From Chrysoperla carnea (taxonomy: Eukaryota; Arthropoda; Insecta; Neuroptera; Chrysopidae), in contig NC_058339.1 in the NCBI RefSeq assembly GCF_905475395.1, forward strand, positions 49,857,172 through 49,921,171: 64,000 nucleotides of DNA. Direction: 5' to 3'. Both the position numbers and the translations under genes were made by a program. This document shows positions 5,502 to 36,985 of the stretch, in pieces. A model generated the notes under the pieces. It saw only the letters and a list, made by a program, of their open reading frames with translations. It did not search any database and was not told where the DNA came from. Each line of letters opens with the position of its first letter. Position 1 is the first letter of the stretch.

Positions 5502-7343
5502 TTAATATGTTAATTTATTATATCCCAAGTAAACTGGTATTTTTTCCTCTTTTTCTTTATGGTGCGTTCGTTTGTGGGCTGCTATATTCTTATTAGATAT
5601 AAAAGTCTTCTCACAAATATCGCAACTATACGGTCTTTCGCCTAAAATCAAATTAAATTTTTAGAATATATTCCGAAAATCCTTAAAAATAAATCTTACC
5701 AGTATGGGTTCGGACGTGTATAATCATATTATGTTTTCTATTAAAACCCATATCACATATTTCACACACAAATGGCTTCTCGCCTGTATGAGAAAGCATA
5801 TGAGATTTTAAATTTGTATTCGAAAGAAATCTCTTATCACATTCTGTACATGGAAACGGACGTTCTCCTGTATGTTTTAGTTTATGTCTTTTTAAGCCAT
5901 CCGAATGACTAAAACCTGTTCCACATTCTGTGCATAAATAAGGTTTTTCACCAGTATGTTGGCGCATATGAATTCGAAGCTCTGATGAAGTCATAAATGA
6001 CTTAGTGCAAACTGTACACACGAAATTTTTAATCATTAGATGATATTTCATATGACGAGACAGTTTACTTGAATCAGCAAAACGTTTACCGCATGTAGAA
6101 CAGACAAACGGTGTTTCACCTAGATTAAAAATATATAACTTTTACTTTATCGAAACATGTTTAAAATATAAATAATTACCTGTATGAATCCGTAAAACAT
6201 GCCGATTTCGATCAACTGACATTGCAAAACGTTGTTCACAAACAGTGCATTTATAGGGTTTGTTAATCATGTGTGAATTGAAATGTTGTTTCAAACTCTT
6301 CTCAGATCGGAACGACTTTGAGCATTTAGGACAAATAAAATATTCATACTTTTGATGTATCAGCATATGAATTCCTAAATCTACTTCCAATTCAAAACAT
6401 TTTTTACATTTGGGACATGGGAATCCACTTTCAGGATTATCATCAACTTTTTTTTCCTCCTCTTTCACTTCCACTTTCTTCTTTACCTTCTGTTTTGTAG
6501 GTTTTTTAGTACCTTTAGCATTTTTGACACCTTTACCTTTAGTTTTTTTAATTTTAGGAATGTCATCCCAATCGTCATCGTCATTAATTAAATCACTATT
6601 TTCTGTCTTTAGTTTCTTTTTTGAAGGTTTCTTTTTGACATCGCTTGGTAAACTATTCTTTCCAGTTTTAGTCTTTGTACTTTCTAAGTTATTATTTTTT
6701 TTCTTGGTAGAATCCAAAATACTTTTATCATCGCTTGTGGTAGTTTCACTAAAGCCATCTACATTACTAAACGGCTTAATATCACATGTATCGAAATTAT
6801 CGTCGTTTACATTATAAGAATCCTCGGATTTAATGTCGATTTCATTTGCGTCACTTTCAAGTTTGACAGGTGTTACTCCAAATTCTTTTAATTGTAGCAA
6901 AATTTTTTGGGACACATCACATTGTTTTCTAAATTCAAACGCAGTATTTAGTTTGTTAATACATTCAACGCAAATTAATTTTGGTAAATCATCCTCCATG
7001 TCAATCTAAATAATAAATATAAATTTATGTAAATAATACTCAACAAGGATATTCGTACACAATCGTGTATCTAGCTCAACGCATCTCATATGCCAAATTG
7101 AGTCGAATTAAGCGTGGTTTACGAGAGTTTCGAACCTAACACAAACTAAAGCTGTATAATTCGCTTGTGTACGAATATAACTACTTTTTTAATGTTTACT
7201 GTACTTACTTGTAGTGAAGTACATTCCTTTAGTAAGTCTAAAACACAAAAAATTGCTCGAGAGTTATCTTTTTCTAATAAACATGTTCTGCAAATTTTTT
7301 TGAAGTTTGCTTGTATATTTGATAATCGAATATATTCATCCAT
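5502..7343 (-). CDS. Gene B: ZAD-C2H2 zinc-finger protein, 9 fingers
   Basis: Closest paralogue of gene A, about 506 residues. Exons are 7209-7343, 6180-7005, 5700-6119 and 5502-5641 (introns 203, 60 and 58 bp, phases 0, 1, 1). ZAD cysteines C18, C21, C57 and C60 are all present. The linker lacks about 16 residues found in A after the DTCD motif. Its lysine-rich part (about residues 115-230) is almost identical to A, even in nucleotides. Finger layout is 3 + 5 + 1, with canonical TGEKP/TGERP linkers. Compared with A, exon-3 fingers differ mostly in or near the recognition helix (for example SHSDGLKRH against SHADNYKIH), so DNA targets probably differ. Intron 2 is a multiple of three but contains an in-frame stop, so retention would truncate. 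The start aligns exactly with A. Confidence 0.88.
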
Positions 7344-17268: not shown

Positions 17269-20200
17269 ATGATATCCGAAAAAATTTGTAGAACTTGTGT
17301 GGCTGAGAAGGATAATTTACAAGCAATTTTTAATGTTACAGATATGCTAAAAGTGTGTACTTCTATACAGGTAAAAACTTTGTTTACATATTTGTGTCTT
17401 TCTACATCACGGATCTAGTAATTATAGTAGGGATGTAGTATAAAGTCCTACTTAAGACGGGGGGGGGGGGGTGTATCACTCAGGGGGAAGCAATGTGCCT
17501 ACTTTTGATTGGCTCTCATTTGCGGGAAATTCAAATAGAACGATAATATTTCGTGTGTTTTAGATTTTAATATTTCTATATCCATGGTTTTAGATTGCCT
17601 CAAGCAATATGCCTGCTTTTGATTGGCTGCGGCTGTTCGCACTCCCAATTGCGGGAGAAATTAAATGAGTAGCGAATTCTGCGTGTATTGTAGATTGGTC
17701 CGAGCAAAAAATCTTTCTATTTAAAGTAAAACCTTTTACCCTAAAGAAAATAATGTATTTTTTTAAAAATACAATTTAGAAATTAATTACAAATATAATA
17801 TTTTTAACTAATTACCCTTGGATGAAGGAATATACCTTTAATATTCCTATGACCGACTAATTACCTAAAGAATATATCGTAAATAATTCGTAAAATAATA
17901 AAAATAAAACTTCAGTTATTTAAATTAATATTAGGTTCACGGGTACATAATTCATTACATAAATAAGTAATAATTTGCCCAAATAACTTTTGCTGACTTT
18001 CAGCATGCACCTAGTTAACAGCCAATAGAAAGTAGGCACAATGATACCCTGCCTCTTCCCCCTGAGTGAGACTCACCCCACTCGGTTATACTCCATCCCT
18101 TTTAAAATATTCCTATATCCATGTTCTACATCATCATTCCAATAATAATAAATTTTTCATTGTTAAAGGTAACTAAAAATGATGGTTTGCCGGAATTAAT
18201 TTGTTCGGAATGTATAGAAAAATTAAATAATGCTTTTGAGTTTAGAAAGCAATGTGAAATTTCTGATAAAACTCTTAAAAAATTTACGCATAGGGTAAAT
18301 TTACTAGAAAATATATCAGTTATTAAAGAAGATTTTGTTTTAAATAAAGAACCTGATGATTTTGATATTAAATCCGAAAATTTAATTGATTTTGATAATT
18401 CGTTGCAAAGTAACGAAGACAATGATGATGAAATTATAATTCAGAAAACAAATAAAGAAAATGAAAGCATATTCGAATATAAATCCCAAATTAATCCAGA
18501 AAATTGCATACCCTGTTCTGAATGTAAAGAATGCTTTGAATCACAATCAGATTTGGAAACTCACATGATAACGCATCCTAAATTAGAAGAAAATGTGTTA
18601 ACATGTACTAAATGCTCAAAATCGTTTAGTGATATAAAAATTTTACGTAGGCATGTTCTCACACATATGAAAAATAAGCGCTTTAAATGTTCAATATGTT
18701 CAAAAGGTTTTTCCGAATCTGGTAATTTTCAACGTCATATAAGAACACATAAAGGTGAAAAACGATATTTTTGTAAAATTTGTAATAAGGGCTTTTATGA
18801 AAAAAATGTTTTAGCACTTCATACAAGAACACACACGGGTAATTTTTATATATTAGTCTTGGCTTAAAATCAAAAGAACGTTTTTCTAAAGCTGTGATTT
18901 TTGATTTTCATCATTTATCTATAAAAAAAATTTTATAGTTTCTTTGGCGCATAATTTTCAAAATTCAATTCAAGTATATTACTTTCTAAACTTAGTATAC
19001 CTTGCATATTACATGTATGCATGGTATAAAAATACAAAATTATTTTTATATAAAAAAATAGACATTTTTTGAATATAAATCCAGTAAAATTAAGTATTCA
19101 GTCACGTGACAGCAAACGCCAATAAAAAAGTATTACGTAACGCCATCCCAAACGCTATTAATACTATTTACATTTTAATAGAACGAACACGATTACATCG
19201 GTTACATTATTGTCATACACAAAATGATGGATTACTTACAACTGCTAGAAACTTTTATACCCAAAAATTGCTTGGCAAGTCGTGATGTCATTCAAGACAC
19301 CATTACACTTTACACTGTTTTTGAAGTAAATTAGAATTGGTTTCTGAAAATGTAAAATAATCGAATATCGAATATTATTGTAACGTATAAACCAATTTTT
19401 CTTTAAGACAAAAGCCTATTATCCGTATCACTTTTATACTGTATTTGTTATTATCTTGAAAAATCAAATATTTATGTTTTTCTGATTTTGAGCTATCTAT
19501 TTAGTCTACATTATTTGATACAAAACTAAATAAAAGTTATTTTCTAGGAGAGAAACCTATCATATGTTCAGCTTGTGGGAAACGATTTTCTGATCCAAGT
19601 GGCTTGTGGGCGCACATGAAAACACATAGTGGTGAAAAAAATTACACATGTCAAGTTTGTTATAAATCTTTTTCACATTCATTTGTTTTAACGAAGCATA
19701 TGCGTATACATACAGGCGAACGTCCTTATTTGTGTACCGAATGTGGTAAAAGTTTTACTCAATCGTACTATGTCCAAATTCATATGAGAAAACATACTGG
19801 AGAATTTCCATTTGCATGTACAGAATGTAATAAAAAATTCACTCAGAATAGTCAATTGGAAATTCATAAACGAGTTCACACTGGTGTAAAACCATATGCT
19901 TGCTCTATATGTGATAAACGATGTGCTAGAAGCGGAGATCTTACTAAACATATGAGATCTCATACCGGTAATTATTAAACAAAATTAACATACGTTATTT
20001 AGTACGACAGACCTTATATAATAATTTTCTACAGTTTCCCTTAACGAATTCTAGATGAAAGAAGACATGATTCTCTTCAAGAGTTTCGTTGGGGACGCAT
20101 TATCTACCAATTCCTAGACTTTACGAATCTCTTTTCCTCCATCCACATAATCGAAATTATGTAATGGAAAGTGTTTTATAAATAAAGAATGAAAGATTGA

Positions 20201-20847
20201 AAATAATGATGGGTGGGAAAATAATGAAAATAATTACCTGTGTTTTATACGGATATCTGAAAAATAGTGTATTAACAGTCACGATTTAACGGACTTAAGC
20301 CTAAGTACAAAAGTAATCCTTATAAAATTCTACACAAAATTTCCTTTGTAAAAATTTATTTAAATATATCAACGAATGGGCCCGCTAGCATTAATATATC
20401 GAATAAAATTTTTGTTGAAATAAGTCCCCAATTTTTAAAAACTTTGCTCCGTTTCTGATTTTTTTACATTGCGATTCAAAAATCTGAAAAATTCAATATC
20501 TTTACTTTGTTTGAAGAAGGGAATCATTGTTAACTACCCAATCCATACATTATTTTATTAATAAAGGATTTGTTTCAGGAGAGAAACCCTTTGCTTGTAA
20601 CATTTGTACAAAAAAATATGCATCATCAAGTCGATTAGCTGCTCACAGGCGTAGTCATTCAGGTGAACGCATTCATAGTTGTGATATTTGTGGGAAAGGA
20701 TTTATCGAATCGCAAGGATTAAAAGCACATAAACGAACGCATACAGGAGAAAAACCATATGAATGTACTACTTGTGGTCAACGATTTAGTCAAGCTGGTT
20801 CTTTAAATACGCATAAAAAAATTCATACCGAATTATCGAAGACTTAA
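17269..20847 (+). CDS. Gene E: divergent ZAD-C2H2 zinc-finger protein, 12 fingers
   Basis: About 486 residues. Exons are 17269-17370, 18169-18838, 19548-19967 and 20579-20847 (introns 798, 709 and 611 bp, phases 0, 1, 1, the same as in the minus-strand paralogues). The first Met is only six residues before ICRTC, so the ZAD start is shorter than in A-D. The second cysteine pair is ICSEC in exon 2. Exon 2 has a short acidic linker and four fingers, exon 3 five, exon 4 three. The last finger of exon 3 has Cys in place of the core Phe (CDKRCARSGDL). The Met at 18121 lies in intron 1 and is not a start. It is the most diverged member of the cluster. A possible AATAAA poly(A) signal is at 20868-20873. 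Confidence 0.87.
17429..18100. mobile_element. MITE with about 90-bp inverted ends in intron 1 of gene E
   Basis: The left end (17429-17515: AGGGATGTAGTATA ... TCACTCAGGGGGAAGCAATG ... CTACTTTTGATTGGCT) is matched in inverse by the right end (18012-18100: AGCCAATAGAAAGTAGGCAC ... CCTGAGTGAGACTCACCCC ... TATACTCCATCCCT). A second internal copy of the TTTTGATTGGCT block lies near 17610-17626. There is a run of 13 G at 17459-17471. It fills most of the intron, and no transposase is present. Confidence 0.75.
18988..19028 (-). repeat. Repeat R copy 3 (terminal 40 bp only), intron 2 of gene E
   Basis: Only the palindromic end survives (CTTAGTATACCTTGCATATT then ACATGTATGCATGGTATA). Confidence 0.6.
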
Positions 20848-22129
20848 ATTTAAATTATATAAAATTAAATAAACAAATTAATTTAAAACTAATCATCATT
20901 GTTTTAATCAAATAAATATACCCTTATTAGACATATAATAGGGGATAATTCTGATATTATCCATAAAAATGTAAAACTAGACTTGATACCATAACAAAAT
21001 TTGAAGGTGAAATTAAAATTAATTAAAAAACGAAGAAGTTTTAAGCAATCAATGATGCCCATTTCCTTTTAGCTTAAAAAGGTTTTATATGTAATTTCTA
21101 TGGCGATACCCACGTATGACTTCACTAGTGGGTATATTCCTCTTTCTTTAATTAGGAAATTAAATGGTTCATATCTCGCATACTAGAAAAGATTTTTAAA
21201 AACCAACTTTTCTATTCGTGAAGGGAGAATTCTTCACCTATTACTGATATCCCTGATTTAAAAAAATTGATTTAGTTGAAGTTTAAATGAATAGAAATTA
21301 AAAACCAAGCTCGTTTTATAAAATTTTCGAACGGAATGAACAAGTCCCAATCGGAAAAATTTACGCAAATAAATAAGTATATTATATTTAATGCAGAAAT
21401 CCATTAAAAATAAATCTAATTTCTTCTTTGTTAGACATCCAATACATTGTACTGATGTTTGTTATTTTTTATTTTGCTTAAATCTGTTTTGGCGAATAAA
21501 TTGATGAGAGTGCTATTCTAATTCATTTGATTATTCGCACCTGTACCGCAGTTAATTGTGACTAAAAAAATTGAATACCTAGTTTTAAGAAGATTTTAAT
21601 GTCCAAAAATCATTTTTGCAAACCTTTTGAGAAATCGCAAAAAAGTGTGTGAGTGGTAGATAAAATATATTACATTAAATGGCATAAATAAATATCAAAT
21701 TTACAGGAACTTCAGAATCTTATTTAGGATATAAAGTTTTAACTTTCAAAATTTTCTAAAAAAGGAATTTCTAAATTATAACTAAAATAATAAGCTGCAA
21801 CTGTGCTGTCATATGTGCGTTTATGTTAATGAAATTGCCTATAGTTATTATTTATATTTGTATGCAATATAAAATTATTAAATTAATTTAACATTTGAAA
21901 GGAAAATTCAATTTTGAAAAATGTTGAGCTAAATTATGCGTAAAATATAAATAAATTAAAATATCTAATTATATTTCAATTAAATTTAAGAAATATTATA
22001 AAATAATTAATTAAAATTATGAACTTCTCACTAGTGACATGTTTAGATGTTGGCACTATATAATGTGAATGACTAGCTATGTTAAATGGAAGTGTGTGTC
22101 TTGTGATGGCACAGCTGAACATTGATCGC
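20848..22129. other. Intergenic E/F, no gene seen
   Basis: AT-rich sequence after the poly(A) signal of gene E. A small hairpin, ACCCACGTATGACTTCACTAGTGGGT (a short stem), is at about 21108. Nothing else is supported. Confidence 0.5.
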
Positions 22130-22293
22130 TATATAGTCTAGGCAGATCTGCTCAGTCGGTGACGTCACGTGGTCGATTCTTGTAGCCGCGGAAGGCTCCC
22201 GATGCAGTGGGTCGGCCCGCTAACGCACGGTAGAGCCACTCTGCGGCTCCTCGAACTACCGCGATTTCCAAATTCCAGGATAGGTCTAACGAG
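22130..22293 (+). promoter_or_regulatory. Candidate promoter and first exon of gene F
   Basis: A GC-rich island in AT-rich DNA. TATATA at 22130-22135 is followed 24 bp later by the initiator-like TCAGTC (22152-22157). A perfect CRE (TGACGTCA, 22160-22167) overlaps an E-box (CACGTG, 22166-22171). The TATA-Inr spacing is shorter than the usual 28-30 bp, so the start point is uncertain. An ATG at 22202 opens a frame of 30 codons that ends at the possible donor AG|GTAATT (22293/22294). Its phase fits the next exon, so gene F may begin here. Otherwise this is a non-coding leader exon, with an alternative donor G|GTATGC near 22331. Confidence 0.45.
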
Positions 22294-22773
22294 GTAATTC
22301 ATTCGCTTCCATATAACGGCACTGCAGTTGTGGTATGCCATTTCTTTTTTTTCATTTTAATCATTTACAAAATTACTTATAATTATTGCAATACAATTAA
22401 TTTTTAATTTTCCATTCATAAATAATAATAAAGTATTATTTTACAATCTGTAGAAAACACAAAAATAAATCGATTACAAATTAAATTTTGTTGACCTTTG
22501 TCAATATGACATTTTTTTGTTTTTAAAGTTTAAAAAAAAATATTTGTCAAAATTTTTCTTAAATCATACACTGTGTTACCAAATTCCGGTAGTTTAACAA
22601 AGAATTTACAAAATTTTTCAATCCATTATGAATTGTAAGTAATAGTAAATTGTAACTGTATACGTTACAAAAATTCAATGCTAATGGTGTTCTTAATTTT
22701 CCAATTGAACACCTAATATTTTTTTTAATTCATACTTTTCAATTTCAATTGTATACCTTTATTTTATTACAGA

Positions 22774-25700
22774 ATGTTTAGGTCTAATTTTTACTCAGGA
22801 TATTCAAGGTAAAAAACTTTTTATTTAAAGAAAAATTAACCACGGGCCTTTGTCATATTTTTCGTAAACATTAACAACAAAGTTAGAGGAATGTTGGGGC
22901 AGGTCTTATCAATGTTGCTGTTATATTCGTAGTCCCCGTTTTTATATTATAATCATACAATAAAACCTCAAAAACTCATTCATGAAGAATTAAAAATAAA
23001 ATATTGGGTTCGAATTTTCCACATGATTTATACTGGTAAATTTAAAGTTGTAAGATCTCAAGTATTATGAGGTATTTTTAAGCCTAATGTTGAATTCACA
23101 TCAAAACAATTGGCGACAAGCCGTAATATACTTTTATGTGTATAAGTATATAGTGTGTATTACGGGATTTTGGTGAATTTTTTTTTAAACTCGTGATATC
23201 GATGGGAATTTTTTACTCGAGGCTCAAATAGAACTGTCTTAGGAGAAATTAATATTTGTTTTGATATATTTTTGGCCAATTTTCGACTTTGTTGTTCGAA
23301 AAGAGTAGTTCGGGTAGATACACATTGACGGGGTATAGTTAGTAAATAAATAAAATAAAACTGTTATCTAGAATTTTATAGGAAGTATTTATTAACTACT
23401 AATTTTGTTTTTGAGGCTGGAGACATGGATCATTTTATACCAATAAATCACAATGAAGATAACAAAATTCGGCAAGATATTTTTAAGGAACAGAACGAAA
23501 TACCATTATTATGTTGTAAGCTTTTTCCATCTTGTAGAGTGGTTTTCTTTATTTTTAATAATAGAGGGCCGCAACTTCGGTTCTATAAGATCAAAAGACT
23601 TGGAAATTGTCCAATAAAGTGGGCAGACACAAATAGCTAGTTGATAACATTAGAAGGCAACTTGCAAGGTTGATAAAATTAAATAGCAAGTAAAATTTTT
23701 GACTTTCTTACGTGGATGACTGCCTTGACTTTTAAAGTATAGTATAATACTAACTCCATTCTCTTTAATCGTACTAAGTTTGTTTGGGTTACAAAAGGTT
23801 GGCTTAGCATGGATAGACTTTTTTTTGGAATCTAGCATTAGAGATTCGAAGAGAGGTTATAAAAAGATTGAAATTAAATGTATCTACGAAATAATTTTAC
23901 CAATTTTAATACCAATTTTGTTCTAAGGTCCGGCAAATAGAAAGACTCTCATCAAAAATTCAGACAAAGTAGATGCAAGTACAATTTGTAATTTTTCTAT
24001 ATCAGGTAATAAATATCTATATTAAAAAAAAAAACATTTTAAATTTTCCAATAAAATAATTTATTTGAATAGATACAAGAAATTGGAAAACAAGATTTCG
24101 AAATCAGTTTTTGAAAACAACACCACTAACTAAATCTTTAGTAAATTCAGTTACGTGTAAACGATATCCAATTTTATCAACATTTTCGTCATCAGGTGAA
24201 GTTGAAAGTAAGTGTGTTCATTAGGTAGGTAAGCACTAAGTGGTATAAACAGGCGAAACCTGCAGTTTATAATTTCCATAACAGAAATAATCAAATATTT
24301 TCCCCGAATGCAGTTTCACTTTCAAAAGAAGAATTATTATTTTATCTTATGGATTATTTCATCAAGTAATGGATTCAATTACAGAAAATATTGGGTATTT
24401 ATTCAATTTTTTTAGCTCTATGTGGGACAAAGATAGAATTTGTGATCTAGAATAGAGCAAATCAAAAACTTTCACCCTAAAAATTTCTAAATTCAACAGC
24501 ATTTTCTCATAATCAAATACTTAACCAACTAAATCAGTCGCAAATCGAGATCAAGAGGGCAGATTGCCTGACCTACCCTCCTCTTGAACCACCCATGACA
24601 AATAGAAGGTTACTTACGATTTCAAGACTTATTTAAATTAACAATGGTATAAAAAGCATATAATAAGAATTAAGGAAACAAGGATGGGTTCGAATTTTTT
24701 CCATTAATTTTTGGCTATTAATATTAATTTTAGGTATAAAGTCACAAGAATCATCAAATTTGGAAATATTTTTGTCGACTGTTTCGATCTGTGAAAAATG
24801 CGAATGTGTTGAGAGTGAGTAAAAATCAAATCAATGTAATCTATTATATACGTATTTACACCGAAACTATAAGGATAAACATACCCTATTGTTAGGTCAT
24901 ATCGGAAAAACAATATGTTTTTTAAACTATTTGTAGGTTTTGAAATTTTATAAGACGATGAACCCGATGGATTGGGTTATATCTTTAAGGCTTTTATGCA
25001 TTATAATTATCTGCAGGTGATACTAAGTTGAACAAATTTTGTATGAAGCAAGCGCGAATTTGAAAAGGAGCAAATCGGCAATTGGCTCATTTGCTCCTCT
25101 CTATACATTTTATATAAAAGAAATTCATTATACATCTCTGTCTGTATGTTTATCTGATAGTTCCTTCTAAACCGCGTCACATATTTTGAAACAGTTTCCA
25201 CCATCGTGTAGATACTTTTTTCCAGAAGGTTTTTATGTACAGTATATCCTAATTAAATTTTCGTAAATTGTGTAAATAATAAATTCTTATGTGCTATACA
25301 TACAAAAATCGGTATATGCCCACGTAAGGGTAAACCGGGTACATACTTGGTGGTGCCTACTAGGATGCTGTATCCTGGGGGAGGGGGGTGAAAAACTGGT
25401 TCATATATGTTCCGTGCGAGACCGAACCGGGTTGCTTGTACTGCATAATGGCAAAAAATTTGCAGCCGTTAGCAGTAACACATAATACATTTGGGTATAG
25501 CTCTTTCGATATGGGTTATATTTCACATACAAATCGTTTAATTTAAGTTTAAAGTTTTAATTCTCTATTATGGAAAGCCCATAATATTCCATTTGAATAC
25601 TCTTCATGGAAAACACATTCGTACATTCTTAATGGAAAACACAATTTTTTTCTATAAATAGATGCTCCAGCTCTTGTTAAATCGTCAACGAGGCCAGATT

Positions 25701-28604
25701 TAACGTGTCACAAAACCAAAGGTGAGTTCAATAATTCATTGACTATTTTAAACTTTAAATAATGACAAAAGTAGAAAAGAAACTAAAATTTATGTAGATT
25801 ATAGTTCCATATGCCAAAAATGGATCGGGACCCAGATCTGAACGCCCCTTGCATCAATTGTTACAACTGCAAAATTTCTGTACAACTTCGTGTTAAAAAA
25901 GTCTGGGGAATTTATTTTTTTGGAAATTTGGATCACTAAAAATATTATTTTAAATCTGAAACTCGTTCTAAGTGAAATTAAAATTTTTCTTTTACCCGAC
26001 TTAATCATTTCGTTTGAATCTTATGTATCATTTATTTAGATGTTCTGAGTGTTGAAAGCATTCAAGAAGTATGTCCTCATTGTCTTGCAAAACACCTATC
26101 ATGCGATAATCAGCCTCAAGATAATAAATGTGCCGTATCGTTAAACAGTAAGATATTTTATCTTGTAATACAGTGTATTGATATTTATAATATTCTTAGC
26201 TAATTTTAAAATTTTATGGCGATTTTTATATATTAACACAGTTTCCCACATAATTTTTCCTAATTTCGCATTTCATGATGCTATTTATCTGTTTTTTATC
26301 CTTTTGATCATATTATTTAACATCTCACGGGCTTATGGAAGCCCTTCTATTACGTTGCTGCTCCTGAGGTCTCATAAAGAGTTGCAATTTAAAAAAAGTA
26401 TAAAGAAGTAAATTTAAGCTTTTGAATCTCCGCTTTTATATAGAATTTTTGAGTTTACTGCATATTTTAAAAAACGATTTCATCAAATGTTCTGTTATTT
26501 TAATTTATTTGCTAAAATTTTTTTCCTTTTTAAAAATTAGGTGACATAAGTTTGTCTAGCACATTTATTCAAGAAATCGATTATCAATCTGTTAAAAATG
26601 ACACATCTGCTGGTAAGATTGCAGTTTATGCATATTATTGTAATTTCAGGAGTATCATGTATGAATATTTTATGATTCCTTTAATTTTTTTCGTTTTTTT
26701 CAAATCGTGGTATTTATTGAGCTTATTTAAAAAATTAGATGCCTTTTTGAAATTAAGCTATTCACAAAATTACCATAGATTATTATTTTGAAAAAAAAAA
26801 GGATAATCTACACAAGGAAGTTTAATTAACTTCTTCTTTCGAAGATTAGCCTCTCGATGTTTCAAATTTGAAAATATTTTTGCCATTTTATGTATATTTC
26901 AACTAAATTTCTATTTTTGATAAAATGGGATAAATGAACACCGACCTAGTTTTTTTTAAGTTTATAATTAAGAAAAAATGTTTGCAAACGAAATTGTTCT
27001 TCTTCAAATGTAAAGATAGAATTAAATAAATATTATCTTCTTAAAGTGACAATAAAAATGCCATCCGAATCCTTAAAACAAAAATTGATACAGAAAGGTT
27101 TGTTGAAGCTACCCAAGAGCAGCTCCACACATTGTGATCATTGCACTAATAATTGTCAAGCTGTAGTTGTAAGCAGAGACTACTCTAAATCTCAACAAAT
27201 ACTAACTGCCAAATGTTCATGTTTTGAAATTCCTTTACCTCCCGATGCAGTCAAAACAGCATTATCTAAAGATTCGTATTCTAAACGAAAGAAAACTTAT
27301 GTCAGCCATTATTCAACATTTTCACATCAATCAAATGGTAAGATCAATAAATTTTTTTATTCCGAAAAAAATATTAATAAATTATTACAATTTCGAAGAT
27401 TCTGAAGAAAAATTACCCAGGTGTACATGTTGTGACTCGCTGAAATCAAAATTATCAATTGTTTCACAAGGTTAGTAAATTTAAACATTATTCACAAAGA
27501 TTGAAAATTTAACTCCTTTAAAACTAGAACTATTTAAATCGTTTGCCCTCTTCGATAAATGTACGCACCATCGAATTTAAATAAAATTTAACTACTTCCG
27601 TCTTTCTAAAATTATTTTTTTGGATCAAATTCTTCTCGGGTCTGTAGACCCTAATGTGAAGTTCATAAATATCTTCACATGCTCGTCAAATTTTTGAAAA
27701 TGTTACAGTTGCAGCAAGTTGAAGCAACTAGTTTGCCTTTTGTTTTATCTGTAGAATAAAAATTTTCATTTGAGCAGAAAGAAGAAAGATTTCGGAAAAA
27801 TCAACGATTTTCAATAATTTTTTGCGATTTAGTCGAAAAAGAACCATCAAAGTAGTGTTTTTGGTGGTTTTTTAATTTTTTTTTAAAACTTTGAATTTTA
27901 GAGAAAATATACTTCTAATAAAATTTGTTAAGCATAAAGTTTCCAAACGATCTGTATATTTCGATTGTTCTCAATCTTTCGTATTTTTGGAATAATTTTT
28001 TTCATAAACTATGCATTTTAGAAAAAAACACACCAGTTTAAAGTTAAATTAACAAAGAGTGTGAAATTTTTAATCTATTTGAAAACTACGGAAAAACATG
28101 TAGAGATCGGTAGGGAATTTTAGGCTAAACAATTATCATCAGAAGGTGTTCATAATAATTAAAAAATTACCACTATCAATTTTCACTAATTTTTTTTCGT
28201 GCTAAATTTATTAAAATTAATACAGTACAATTTGAATTATTTTAAATTAGACGATAGCTCCGAAGATATTCAAAAGAAGTTTAATGGATGTGGGAAAAAG
28301 GAATCTTTTCTTGTAGATAATTATAGACCTTTATGTAACCGACAACCTGATGTTATTCCGTTTATTTGTCAACGGGCAACCATTTCAACCGCAGGAAAAA
28401 ATCATCAAGACGGTATTTGAATATCTGGTAAATAGATTTCATTTTTATGGATGAAATGCTATTTTCAAATTAAAAAAAAATTTAATTGTTATCGTATTAA
28501 ATTTAGAACGAAGTTTAATAACTGCACAGAAGTATCGAAATATAACGAAGAAATGCAAAAATATGCAAGAAAACAGTTTTATATGCCAGAATATACTGAA
28601 TTAA
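22774..28604 (+). CDS. Gene F: novel 12-exon gene, cysteine-containing protein of unknown function
   Basis: I do not recognise this protein. Coding exons are 22774-22808, 23382-23515, 23928-24005, 24073-24207, 24734-24814, 25662-25721, 26040-26147, 26541-26612, 27047-27337, 27399-27470, 28251-28412 and 28507-28604. Each is bounded by AG/GT and all join in frame, giving 441 residues and a TAA stop. The first intron is phase 2 and the other ten are phase 1. The N-terminus is basic and low in acidic residues (MFRSNFYSGYSRK), which could be a mitochondrial presequence. Short cysteine clusters follow: ICEKCECVE, VCPHCLAKHLSC, HCDHCTNNC, KCSC, RCTCC. They suggest metal binding but fit no family I know. 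There is no membrane segment. An AATAAA lies at 28671-28676. The exon at 24073 has a second in-phase donor (24195). The start could instead be at 22202, giving about 472 residues. Confidence 0.65.
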
Positions 28605-30570
28605 AAAGTCATGGTCTGTATAGTTAGCTTTTTTGAAAATTAAATTTATGTTATATGTTACACATTTAAAAATAAAGTGGAATGAATCGGAAATTTTTGC
28701 CCTAATAATTTCAAAAATACGACAATATTTAGATATAAACACACTTAACTTGTAAATTTCGCTATTAGATTACCTACTAATTTTTTAGTTAATTCTTAAA
28801 TCGTGACTAAAATATTGCTTATTTTTAGATTTTCTTTTTTGAATGCCGTAAATGTTAAAAGAAAGTAGTTGACAGAAAAATTAAAATGGGTTGCGTTTAT
28901 AATAAAAAATTTTTATCAACCCTTTCAACACTTAAATTGAAATCACTTCCTCTTGGCTCTTATCATACGAAGTAGAAATATGACGTGGTTTTTTATTTCC
29001 AATGACAATTTCTTTTAAGAGGGAGCGTTGGAAAACTAAATTTTATCTCATTGCTTCAACTATATTTGATATAGAAATGTTTCTTAGTTTTAAATTAAAA
29101 ACTTAAATTATTTTATTTTTTATTTCAATTTTTTTATTTAAAGTCTTTTAATTATTATATATGGCAGAGAAAAAAAAGACATGGAAAATGAACTTGGTCT
29201 AATTTTTTTAGATACGTTTAATATCTTAAATCATTTCATTCTTGTCAGTCTTGTCTTCAAAAAACAAAATTGTAATTTTTACTCCATTATTGATTCCATC
29301 GCTGCCTATAAGAAAGATCTGATCCTAATTACTATTTCTGATTCTTTTTCAGGTAATAATTAATGGAAACAACTAAAAATGAATAAATTACAAAAACAAG
29401 GAAAATATATAAATTTAAAAAAAAAATAATAATTTGTCTTTCTAATTAGTATTTTTGTCAAATATTTTTTACCACCGAGAAAATTTAATGTCTTTTCGAA
29501 TTATGGTGGTTTGATCATTTTAATAATAGTAACTTCCTGTTGTTAGTTTTTAAAATTATTAATAAAAGATCTTTAATTTATTATTTTGATCATTTTTATA
29601 GACTACCGATATGGAGAGATTCCTTATATTTTGAATAATAAATGGAAAATCTGAAAACGCGAAAACACGTATCAACTCATTCATTTTAACGGAATGATTA
29701 TTTTATACGGGAACGTTTATATGGTCAAACAGAGGTTTAATTTTTTTTGTTTAATAAAACTATATATTTGCCAAAAATTGAAAACCAGGAATTTTTGGCT
29801 ACAAAAAAATATGTAGTTCCATTTCTTGAAATATGTTCCCGTATTATACAAAAACTTAATACTATACTTTAATGCCCCTTAAAACTCTGAACTTTGCCTC
29901 TTCTCATTGAACAAACAGAAAAGTGAAGTTAGATTTTGGAAATCCTTAGAAGTACGCAACGTTAATCATTTTTACCCAATTAATATATGTATTTCATTCC
30001 GAAATTTTCTTAAAATAACATACAAATATTACGGTTGTTTTACTGTGCCCCAACTTCCCCTATAGTGATAGAAATTTATTAATAAAAATTTTTGTTTGAT
30101 AAGTAATCTAATTTTGATGATTTTAAAATGTAAATATATTTAAATACACTCCTTATATACATATAAGAAATATAATATATTTAATGATATTTTAATACAA
30201 AAGTTTTCTTAAATGAATAATAATAATAATAAAATATTCATTCGCACAAAGCCAATTTGATCCCCGTCAAAATATTAAATTAAAGCAATTATGCGGACTC
30301 ACATCAAATGATATGTTTATAAATATATTCTATAGATACGATAGATGCGATGCTGACTGTATCTACTGTACCTTAAATAACTAATCTGTCTAAGTTAAGG
30401 ATAAGAATGAATGTTGCAATAACGAATGTTGCGCAACGGTTATAATATAAAGTTTGTTTGCTTAAAAATATGTGCAATGTTTCTATTTTCTATGTCTTAT
30501 TATTATTATTATTACGCATTGTATGTTTAAAAGAGAATTTCTATGTAGAGAGAAGTACAGTCAAATCTGA
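28605..30570. other. Gene-poor sequence downstream of gene F
   Basis: After the candidate poly(A) signal at 28671 the sequence is AT-rich with only short random ORFs. No repeat ends or RNA motifs are supported. A short AAT run lies near 30217. Confidence 0.5.
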
Positions 30571-35492: not shown

Positions 35493-36265
35493 ACTTCTGA
35501 AAAAAAACCTTGTTTCTTCACAATCATCTATCTTCATAAATATTAAAAAAAAATTCCACTGAACCTATTTTATAGAGGCTTGTTTCATCACTTTCTATAA
35601 TATTTATTATTTATTTAATAATATTAATGTAGTAAGTATGTGTATGATTAAAAAAATAATTTCTAACTAATATAATAGATATTCACATAACTTTTTAGGG
35701 TATTTAAAAAAATATTTTTTCTCATGTAAATTACATTTACCATTTAGAAGGTAATCTATTCAATTGTTTTTTTTTTTTATGCATTTGTAGACACTTTTTT
35801 GTTACCGAAATCAAATCAATCTTATAAATTTAATTGTAAATATAATGGATTATTATTTTATAATTGTTATTGATTTCTTATAAGAAAGAAAAAGGGTATT
35901 TTTGATCAAATAAAACTTAAAAAATAAACCGTTGAAGAAAGCCGTATACGTGCATTGAATAAAATTTATAAATTAATTTTTTTAAAGATTCTCTATAAAA
36001 TTTTGGGTTAGCTTTTACTTGGAATCTACTCAAAAAATTTATTAAGGGTGGTACTGCCTTCTTGTTGGTACTTGGTCTTTTTATTCGTAAGTTAAAGAAA
36101 CTTTTGTTGTGAATTTTATACGTATTATTTTATAAGCAGGTATTCTTAAAGTATGTAAAATATTTTTGTTGCGATTTTTATACGACTCCAAAATCATATC
36201 CAGTATGAACAATTTAAAAAAAATTTTGCGATCGAAATTTGTGAAAGAGTTTAAAAGTTCATTGG
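35493..36265. other. No gene seen
   Basis: AT-rich spacer between repeat R copy 4 and a LINE fragment. The junction with the LINE at about 36250 is its 5' truncation point. Confidence 0.4.
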
Positions 36266-36985
36266 TACAAACTCCCGTCGTCCTTCTCTATTTTCTCTTG
36301 CGAGGCATATGCCATTCTAGAAAGCCGTAAATTAATCAAGCAACTCAACATTGAAAATGCAGCCATATTCTCTGACTCAAAATCAGCGATAGAAGCGATG
36401 CAAAACTACAGTTCAATAGACTCTATCATCCAGAACTGTCAATCTAGAATCAATAATATAAATATCTACAAAAATGTAAAAATAATCTGGGTCCCCTCTC
36501 ACCAAGGTATAAGAGGAAATGAATTAGCAGACAAAGAAGCTAAAGAAGCTACGATCACAGGTACAGATCTAATGCAACAACTTCCTACAACTACTACCGA
36601 CTTCAAAAAGACAGTAAAAAATCACGAATGGAACGAATGGAACACTCACTGGTCTAAGAGTCAGTCTCATCTCCACAAAAGCAGAAACAATGTAACTTAA
36701 TCAAGACTATACACTCAGAGCAGAGAAGACCAGTGCTATATCACTAGACTGAGAATTGGACATACAACATTCTCTCACGGACTTTTCCTGAGTAAGGCCA
36801 CCCCCAAAACATGCCCAGCATGCAACGAACCAGCCTCCGTAAGCCACATCATCGAGACATGCCCAGGACTCACGAAACTCAGAAATCAACACGGAATTCT
36901 AGCCGACCTTTCAACTACTCTTAACGAAGAACGTCATTGCCTCCAGACGATCAAATTTTTTAAATCGATGAAACAAATCTGTTAA
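36266..36985 (+). mobile_element. 5'-truncated LINE: RNase H and C-terminal zinc knuckle
   Basis: One frame reads through 36266-36985 with a single in-frame stop (36698-36700). It encodes the end of a non-LTR retrotransposon ORF2. The RNase H part has the conserved acidic residue in FSDSKSAI and the WVPSHQGIRGNELADKEAK motif. The C-terminal part has RLRIGHTTFSHG, then a CPAC / HIIETC zinc knuckle. RNase H followed by this knuckle is typical of I/Jockey-group LINEs. Reverse transcriptase and endonuclease are missing. Dead copy. Confidence 0.85.

What the first reader, a model, noticed from the sequence alone, without database searches (positions are those of the whole stretch)
22774..28604. 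A multi-exon gene of unknown family, hidden in tiny exons
Twelve coding segments of 35-291 bp, each with plausible acceptor and donor, join into one open frame of 441 codons plus a stop. Ten consecutive introns share phase 1, which is hard to get by chance. The product has repeated short cysteine clusters (CxxCxC, CxxCx6C, CxxCx3C, CxCC) and a basic N-terminus, and fits no domain I know. Individual ORFs are so short that ORF-based annotation would miss it.
Basis: partly seen in the sequence, partly recalled or inferred. Interest (0 to 1): 0.8.

Follow-up and report, generated by a model that had tools for sequence, protein, structure and literature searches.

The report
Orphan lacewing gene with matched exons
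The sequence holds what is very probably a real but uncharacterised gene of the green lacewing, cut into about eleven small coding pieces that all join at the same position within a codon; its protein resembles nothing in the libraries searched, and its job is unknown.

Summary
Confirmed: the twelve segments splice by GT-AG junctions into 441 codons plus a stop; introns 2-11 are all phase 1. The best gene model found freely in the region beats every shuffle (0 of 200 at each of five penalties; 0 of 300 at each of three). Phase-1 exon chains in 1000 shuffles reach at most 4 exons, against 11.
Its ends are probably wrong: a start at 23425 and a last exon at 28530-28627 in another frame fit better, giving 11 coding exons, 415 residues, ten introns all phase 1.
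The genome is Chrysoperla carnea. The gene lies between a ZAD-C2H2 array and dachshund. No paralogue was found in its genome, and no Pfam, NCBIfam or PDB match above cut-off. The aphid bicycle-gene classifier rejects it.
Reading: a single-copy gene, perhaps lineage-restricted, for a soluble Ser/Lys-rich protein with four CxxC clusters; each internal exon could be skipped in frame. Function is a weak inference. Expression and conservation could not be tested.

The parts
   Evidence: coding log-odds -2.9; not an exon of the free models
   Evidence: free models use acceptor 23382 once and 23416 twice, so the 5' end is unsettled
23928..24005 (+). coding exon 2, phase 1-1
   Evidence: recovered exactly
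24073..24207 (+). coding exon 3, phase 1-1
   Evidence: recovered exactly
24734..24814 (+). coding exon 4, phase 1-1, CEKC and CEC; less certain
   Evidence: recovered at two of three penalties, not; weak coding signal (+0.8)
25662..25721 (+). coding exon 5, phase 1-1
   Evidence: strong donor but weak coding signal (+0.3)
26040..26147 (+). coding exon 6, phase 1-1, CPHC cluster
26541..26612 (+). coding exon 7, phase 1-1
27047..27337 (+). coding exon 8, phase 1-1, CDHC and CSC clusters
   Evidence: no usable AlphaFold2 model alone (mean pLDDT 46.7)
27399..27470 (+). coding exon 9, phase 1-1, CTCC cluster
28251..28412 (+). coding exon 10, phase 1-1; with no further splice it would end at the stop ending at 28420
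   Evidence: one search took the 28420 ending; donor weak (2.8)
   Evidence: coding log-odds +5.9 against -4.1; chosen at two of three penalties, the third keeps the acceptor but splices on; AATAAA at 28671

Best explanation
A real spliced protein-coding gene of the green lacewing Chrysoperla carnea, single-copy as far as sequence search shows, and either restricted to a narrow lineage or diverged past recognition. About eleven coding exons (23425-28627) encode about 415 residues, and all ten coding introns are phase 1. Shown: the sequence features and their excess over chance, no paralogue found, no known domain found. Inferred: a soluble, largely flexible intracellular Ser/Lys-rich protein whose four CxxC clusters, in four different exons, bind zinc or make thiol contacts and act as small knots in an adaptor. 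As each internal exon is symmetric (1-1), any could be skipped or included without a frame shift, so the number of clusters could vary by splicing. A fast-evolving reproductive or regulatory role is a guess. The confidence given is for the gene being real and roughly as drawn; for the zinc or thiol adaptor mechanism I would say 0.25.
For: Junctions and frame. Free gene models above all shuffles; phase-1 chain 0 of 1000. In the nine revised internal exons the coding frame has no stop and each other frame has at least one; the coding frame also has the highest codon score in 7 of 9. 23 Cys against 9.6 expected from random sense codons (1 of 5000 reach it); four CxxC against 0.22 (0 of 5000). Own-genome search, E up to 10: 11 of 12 matches are this gene's exons, the twelfth has E 0.84. 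Highest 19-residue hydropathy 0.75; no signal-like first exon among ATGs in 19901-23400 at the thresholds set.
Against: No transcript, no second species, no dN/dS. Codon scores come from nine zinc-finger ORFs of the same window, amino acid frequencies and splice matrices from recall. In 2 of 9 internal exons (24734-24814, 25662-25721) another frame scores higher. Real zinc-finger segments of the flanks score far above this gene on the chain test, so that test shows coding, not a special class. CxxC beyond composition is modest: 129 of 5000 shuffles of the protein reach four. The exon 27047-27337 model is unusable.
Confidence: 0.77

Rival explanations
1. It is a divergent member of a widespread insect gene family, with orthologues elsewhere that are merely unrecognised or lack a Pfam model; nothing about it is lineage-specific.
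For: No other insect genome was held, so absence elsewhere is untested. A ten-intron structure is more usual in older genes than in young ones (recalled).
Against: No match in Pfam, NCBIfam or PDB sequences; none of these is a full insect proteome.
Confidence: 0.4
2. It is a distant relative of the aphid bicycle effector genes: many small phase-1 exons and a secreted salivary product.
For: 9 of 9 internal exons of the revised model start at codon position 2, as in nearly all bicycle exons.
Confidence: 0.03
3. The open chain is an artefact of choosing splice sites in AT-rich DNA, or a decayed gene.
For: Weak coding signal in some exons, unsettled ends, a weak donor at 28412; the fixed reader model does not beat all shuffles at four of five penalties.
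Against: Free models and chain test exceed all shuffles; no in-frame stop in any internal exon; Cys excess.
Confidence: 0.12

Closest known systems
Bicycle genes of aphids, phylloxerans and scale insects (PMC9168663; passages seen)
   Same: Many small coding exons, nearly all internal ones starting at codon position 2; product without known domain
   Different: Larger internal exons, classifier rejects it, no paralogue found, no signal-like start seen; host is a neuropteran
Orphan genes of Neuroptera, such as antlion venom protein genes (PMC11319779; passages seen)
   Same: No homologue found
   Different: Those were found as expressed proteins and kept if in the venom proteome and/or with a signal peptide; this one is predicted from DNA and looks intracellular
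ZAD-C2H2 zinc-finger genes next door
   Same: Cys-rich; phase-1 introns also common in their predicted models
   Different: Product matches no zf-AD or zf-C2H2 model, while the one neighbour scanned matches both

Membership tests
Bicycle genes | Gene-structure classifier above 0.72 | tested here: not met
   logit -16.17 and -18.69 with the coefficients printed in PMC9168663
Bicycle genes | Nearly all internal exons start at codon position 2 | tested here: met
Bicycle genes | N-terminal signal sequence (many members) | tested here: inconclusive
   none by hydropathy, no upstream candidate at the thresholds set; true first exon unknown and no signal-peptide predictor was run
Bicycle genes | Cysteine-tyrosine-cysteine motif | tested here: inconclusive
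   the three CxC are CEC, CSC, CTC; a spaced form of the motif was not tested, and the paper reports members without it
Bicycle genes | Multigene family in the genome | tested here: not met
   no paralogue by sequence, though bicycle paralogues can escape sequence search
ZAD-C2H2 zinc-finger genes | zf-AD or zf-C2H2 match | tested here: not met
   0 families at E up to 10 for both full products
BIR / inhibitor of apoptosis | BIR domain above curated cut-off | tested here: not met
   exon 27047-27337 alone: 13.8 bits, cut-off 22.9, E 0.085
Pup ligase | Pup_ligase / PafA model above cut-off | tested here: not met
   C-terminal 86 residues: 11.5 bits against 25; 12.4 against 551.3
Taxonomically restricted (orphan) gene | No homologue in related species | not testable with these tools
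   no other insect genome held; no match in viral or prokaryote collections, which says little

The most novel reading that the evidence does not exclude
The founding member of a new neuropteran protein family whose exons are all phase-1 symmetric, by origin through exon insertion or duplication or by selection for free exon skipping, so that splicing mixes Cys-cluster modules: an architecture reached independently of aphid bicycle genes. Homology between its exons was not detectable (best of 55 pairs 0.035 per pair).
Probability: 0.12. Interest if true: 0.55.

Novelty: new member of a known kind. Interest (0 to 1): 0.3.

Why it matters
If real and lineage-restricted it is one more uncharacterised gene of a widely used biocontrol insect, and a compact case for asking why some unrelated fast-evolving genes carry only symmetric exons of one phase. 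It also shows that a chain of small exons can be recognised from raw sequence alone. Orphan genes are common, so by itself it is modest.

Tried and rejected
Sequence searches of the product, its exon 27047-27337 and its C-terminus against PDB sequences: best 0.75 and 0.64, all carbonic anhydrase 2; one designed protein at 6.6; none for the exon and the 86-residue C-terminus. AlphaFold2 on exon 27047-27337 alone: unusable, so no fold search was run.

Aphid origin was considered because of the bicycle resemblance. The genome has one SQS_PSY gene in two pieces, which I take from recall to be NDUFAF6, hence no carotenoid synthase; the assembly sizes then settled the lacewing. TTAGG repeats: 196 forward and 262 reverse matches, control 1 and 1, not used further.

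Exon-to-exon homology: nothing beyond chance in 55 pairs. A resemblance of the C-terminus to a ciliary protein came to mind from recall; it was not tested as such and the Pfam and PDB searches did not show it.

Random-genome control for phase-1 chains: planned, not obtained.

Full report
WHAT WAS CHECKED. Locating each by its flanking motif gives 1326 nt, 441 codons plus a stop, GT-AG at all eleven introns, intron 1 phase 2 and introns 2-11 phase 1.

IS IT MORE THAN CHANCE. I wrote a simple gene finder (codon log-odds from nine zinc-finger ORFs of the window with general amino acid frequencies, splice matrices from recall) and compared the best free model with dinucleotide shuffles of 22000-29500. 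It beats 200 of 200 shuffles at penalty 12 (15.2 against a maximum of 5.8), 200 of 200 at each of five other penalties and 300 of 300 at each of three penalties with a minimum internal exon length of 24 nt. They also add small upstream exons that I do not believe. A chain test restricted to phase-1 symmetric exons, with settings chosen after seeing the gene, gives 11 exons and 1257 nt; 1000 shuffles reach at most 4 exons and 366 nt. Of 116 flanking segments run as controls the 14 best were listed; they score 68.6-129.2 against 42.0 here, one with 9 exons, and where I could match them to the models they are zinc-finger genes. So the test shows coding sequence, not a special class.

RESULTS AGAINST. 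In two of nine internal exons another frame has a higher codon score. Exon 24734-24814 is dropped and at one penalty.

THE ENDS. Exon 22774-22808 has coding log-odds -2.9. A third ending, the stop ending at 28420, was chosen. The ATG at 23425 starts a frame that leaves all ten coding introns in phase 1 and a product of 415 residues. The acceptor before it is unsettled (23382 once, 23416 twice). An AATAAA lies at 28671.

WHERE IT IS. The window is C3:49857172-49921171 of a 559,487,470-base genome in 337 contigs. Contig C1 is 139,979,878 bases, exactly the longest scaffold of Chrysoperla carnea inChrCarn1.1, which also has 337 scaffolds (PMC10116181; first of two parts of the text read). The totals differ slightly (paper 560,248,701; C3 here 94,120,854 against 94.41 Mb), for a reason I do not know. 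To the left lies an array of predicted zinc-finger genes; the one scanned has zf-AD and zf-C2H2. To the right, beyond the window at about window coordinate 69725, a predicted gene carries the dachshund homology domain (Ski_Sno_DHD, E 9.5e-37).

WHAT THE PRODUCT IS LIKE. 415 residues, 46.9 kDa, pI 8.4, 13.5% Ser, 10.1% Lys; 23 Cys against 9.6 expected from random sense codons (1 of 5000 reach it), four CxxC against 0.22 (0 of 5000); against shuffles of the protein itself the CxxC number is modest (129 of 5000). The four CxxC (CEKC, CPHC, CDHC, CTCC) lie in four different exons. No long hydrophobic stretch, and no signal-like first exon upstream at the thresholds set. No Pfam family for either full product; pieces gave BIR 13.8 bits (cut-off 22.9), Pup_ligase 11.5 (cut-off 25) and PafA 12.4 (cut-off 551.3), all chance-like. 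PDB: nothing below E 0.64. Own genome: 12 matches at E up to 10, 11 of them its own exons, the other E 0.84. Viral and prokaryote collections: none confirmed out of 63 and 227 pattern matches. Exon 27047-27337 alone folds to no usable model.

HOW IT PROBABLY WORKS. Inferred: a flexible soluble adaptor with small Cys clusters that bind zinc or make thiol contacts. Each internal exon can be skipped in frame, so isoforms with different numbers of clusters are possible. Nothing here tests this.

COMPARISON. The nearest known pattern is the aphid bicycle gene: small internal exons nearly all starting at codon position 2 (PMC9168663; passages seen). It is not filed as a member. It is best described as an uncharacterised, possibly orphan, gene.

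VERDICT.

Noticed in passing
L013; L036-L040 (C1:138865001-138915000): Within 50 kb of lacewing chromosome 1, about 1.1 Mb from its end, many long frames look bacterial (an intact 532-residue cytochrome oxidase subunit I, Pfam COX1 E 6e-158; by recall also SecA, MurD, MurG and transposases, Rickettsia-like), interrupted by non-bacterial DNA. Either a nuclear insertion of a symbiont genome piece or a misassembly; its edges were not found. A paper listing (PMC7762206, title and abstract start only) reports Rickettsia in C. carnea.
   Followed up: partly
C1:138878472-138882360 (L037): Long frames between the bacterial-like stretches that by recall resemble a protein-primed DNA polymerase of Polinton type; not searched.
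   Followed up: no
window 1-21000 and 80 kb further left (L020-L023, L032-L035): Array of predicted ZAD-C2H2 zinc-finger genes on both strands, some nearly identical in the linker; one scanned by Pfam.
   Followed up: partly
window 36245-36697: RNase H domain (E 7e-07), probably a remnant of a non-LTR retrotransposon.
   Followed up: partly
L024 from about position 5725 (window coordinate 69725): Predicted dachshund gene (Ski_Sno_DHD E 9.5e-37). In the free models the stretch between about 32 kb of the window and this gene has only low-scoring models.
   Followed up: partly
L014 (C2:59569181-59569471): Mitochondrial-like COX1 fragment of 97 profile positions in chromosome 2 with three TGA codons, probably a nuclear copy of mitochondrial DNA.
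   Followed up: no
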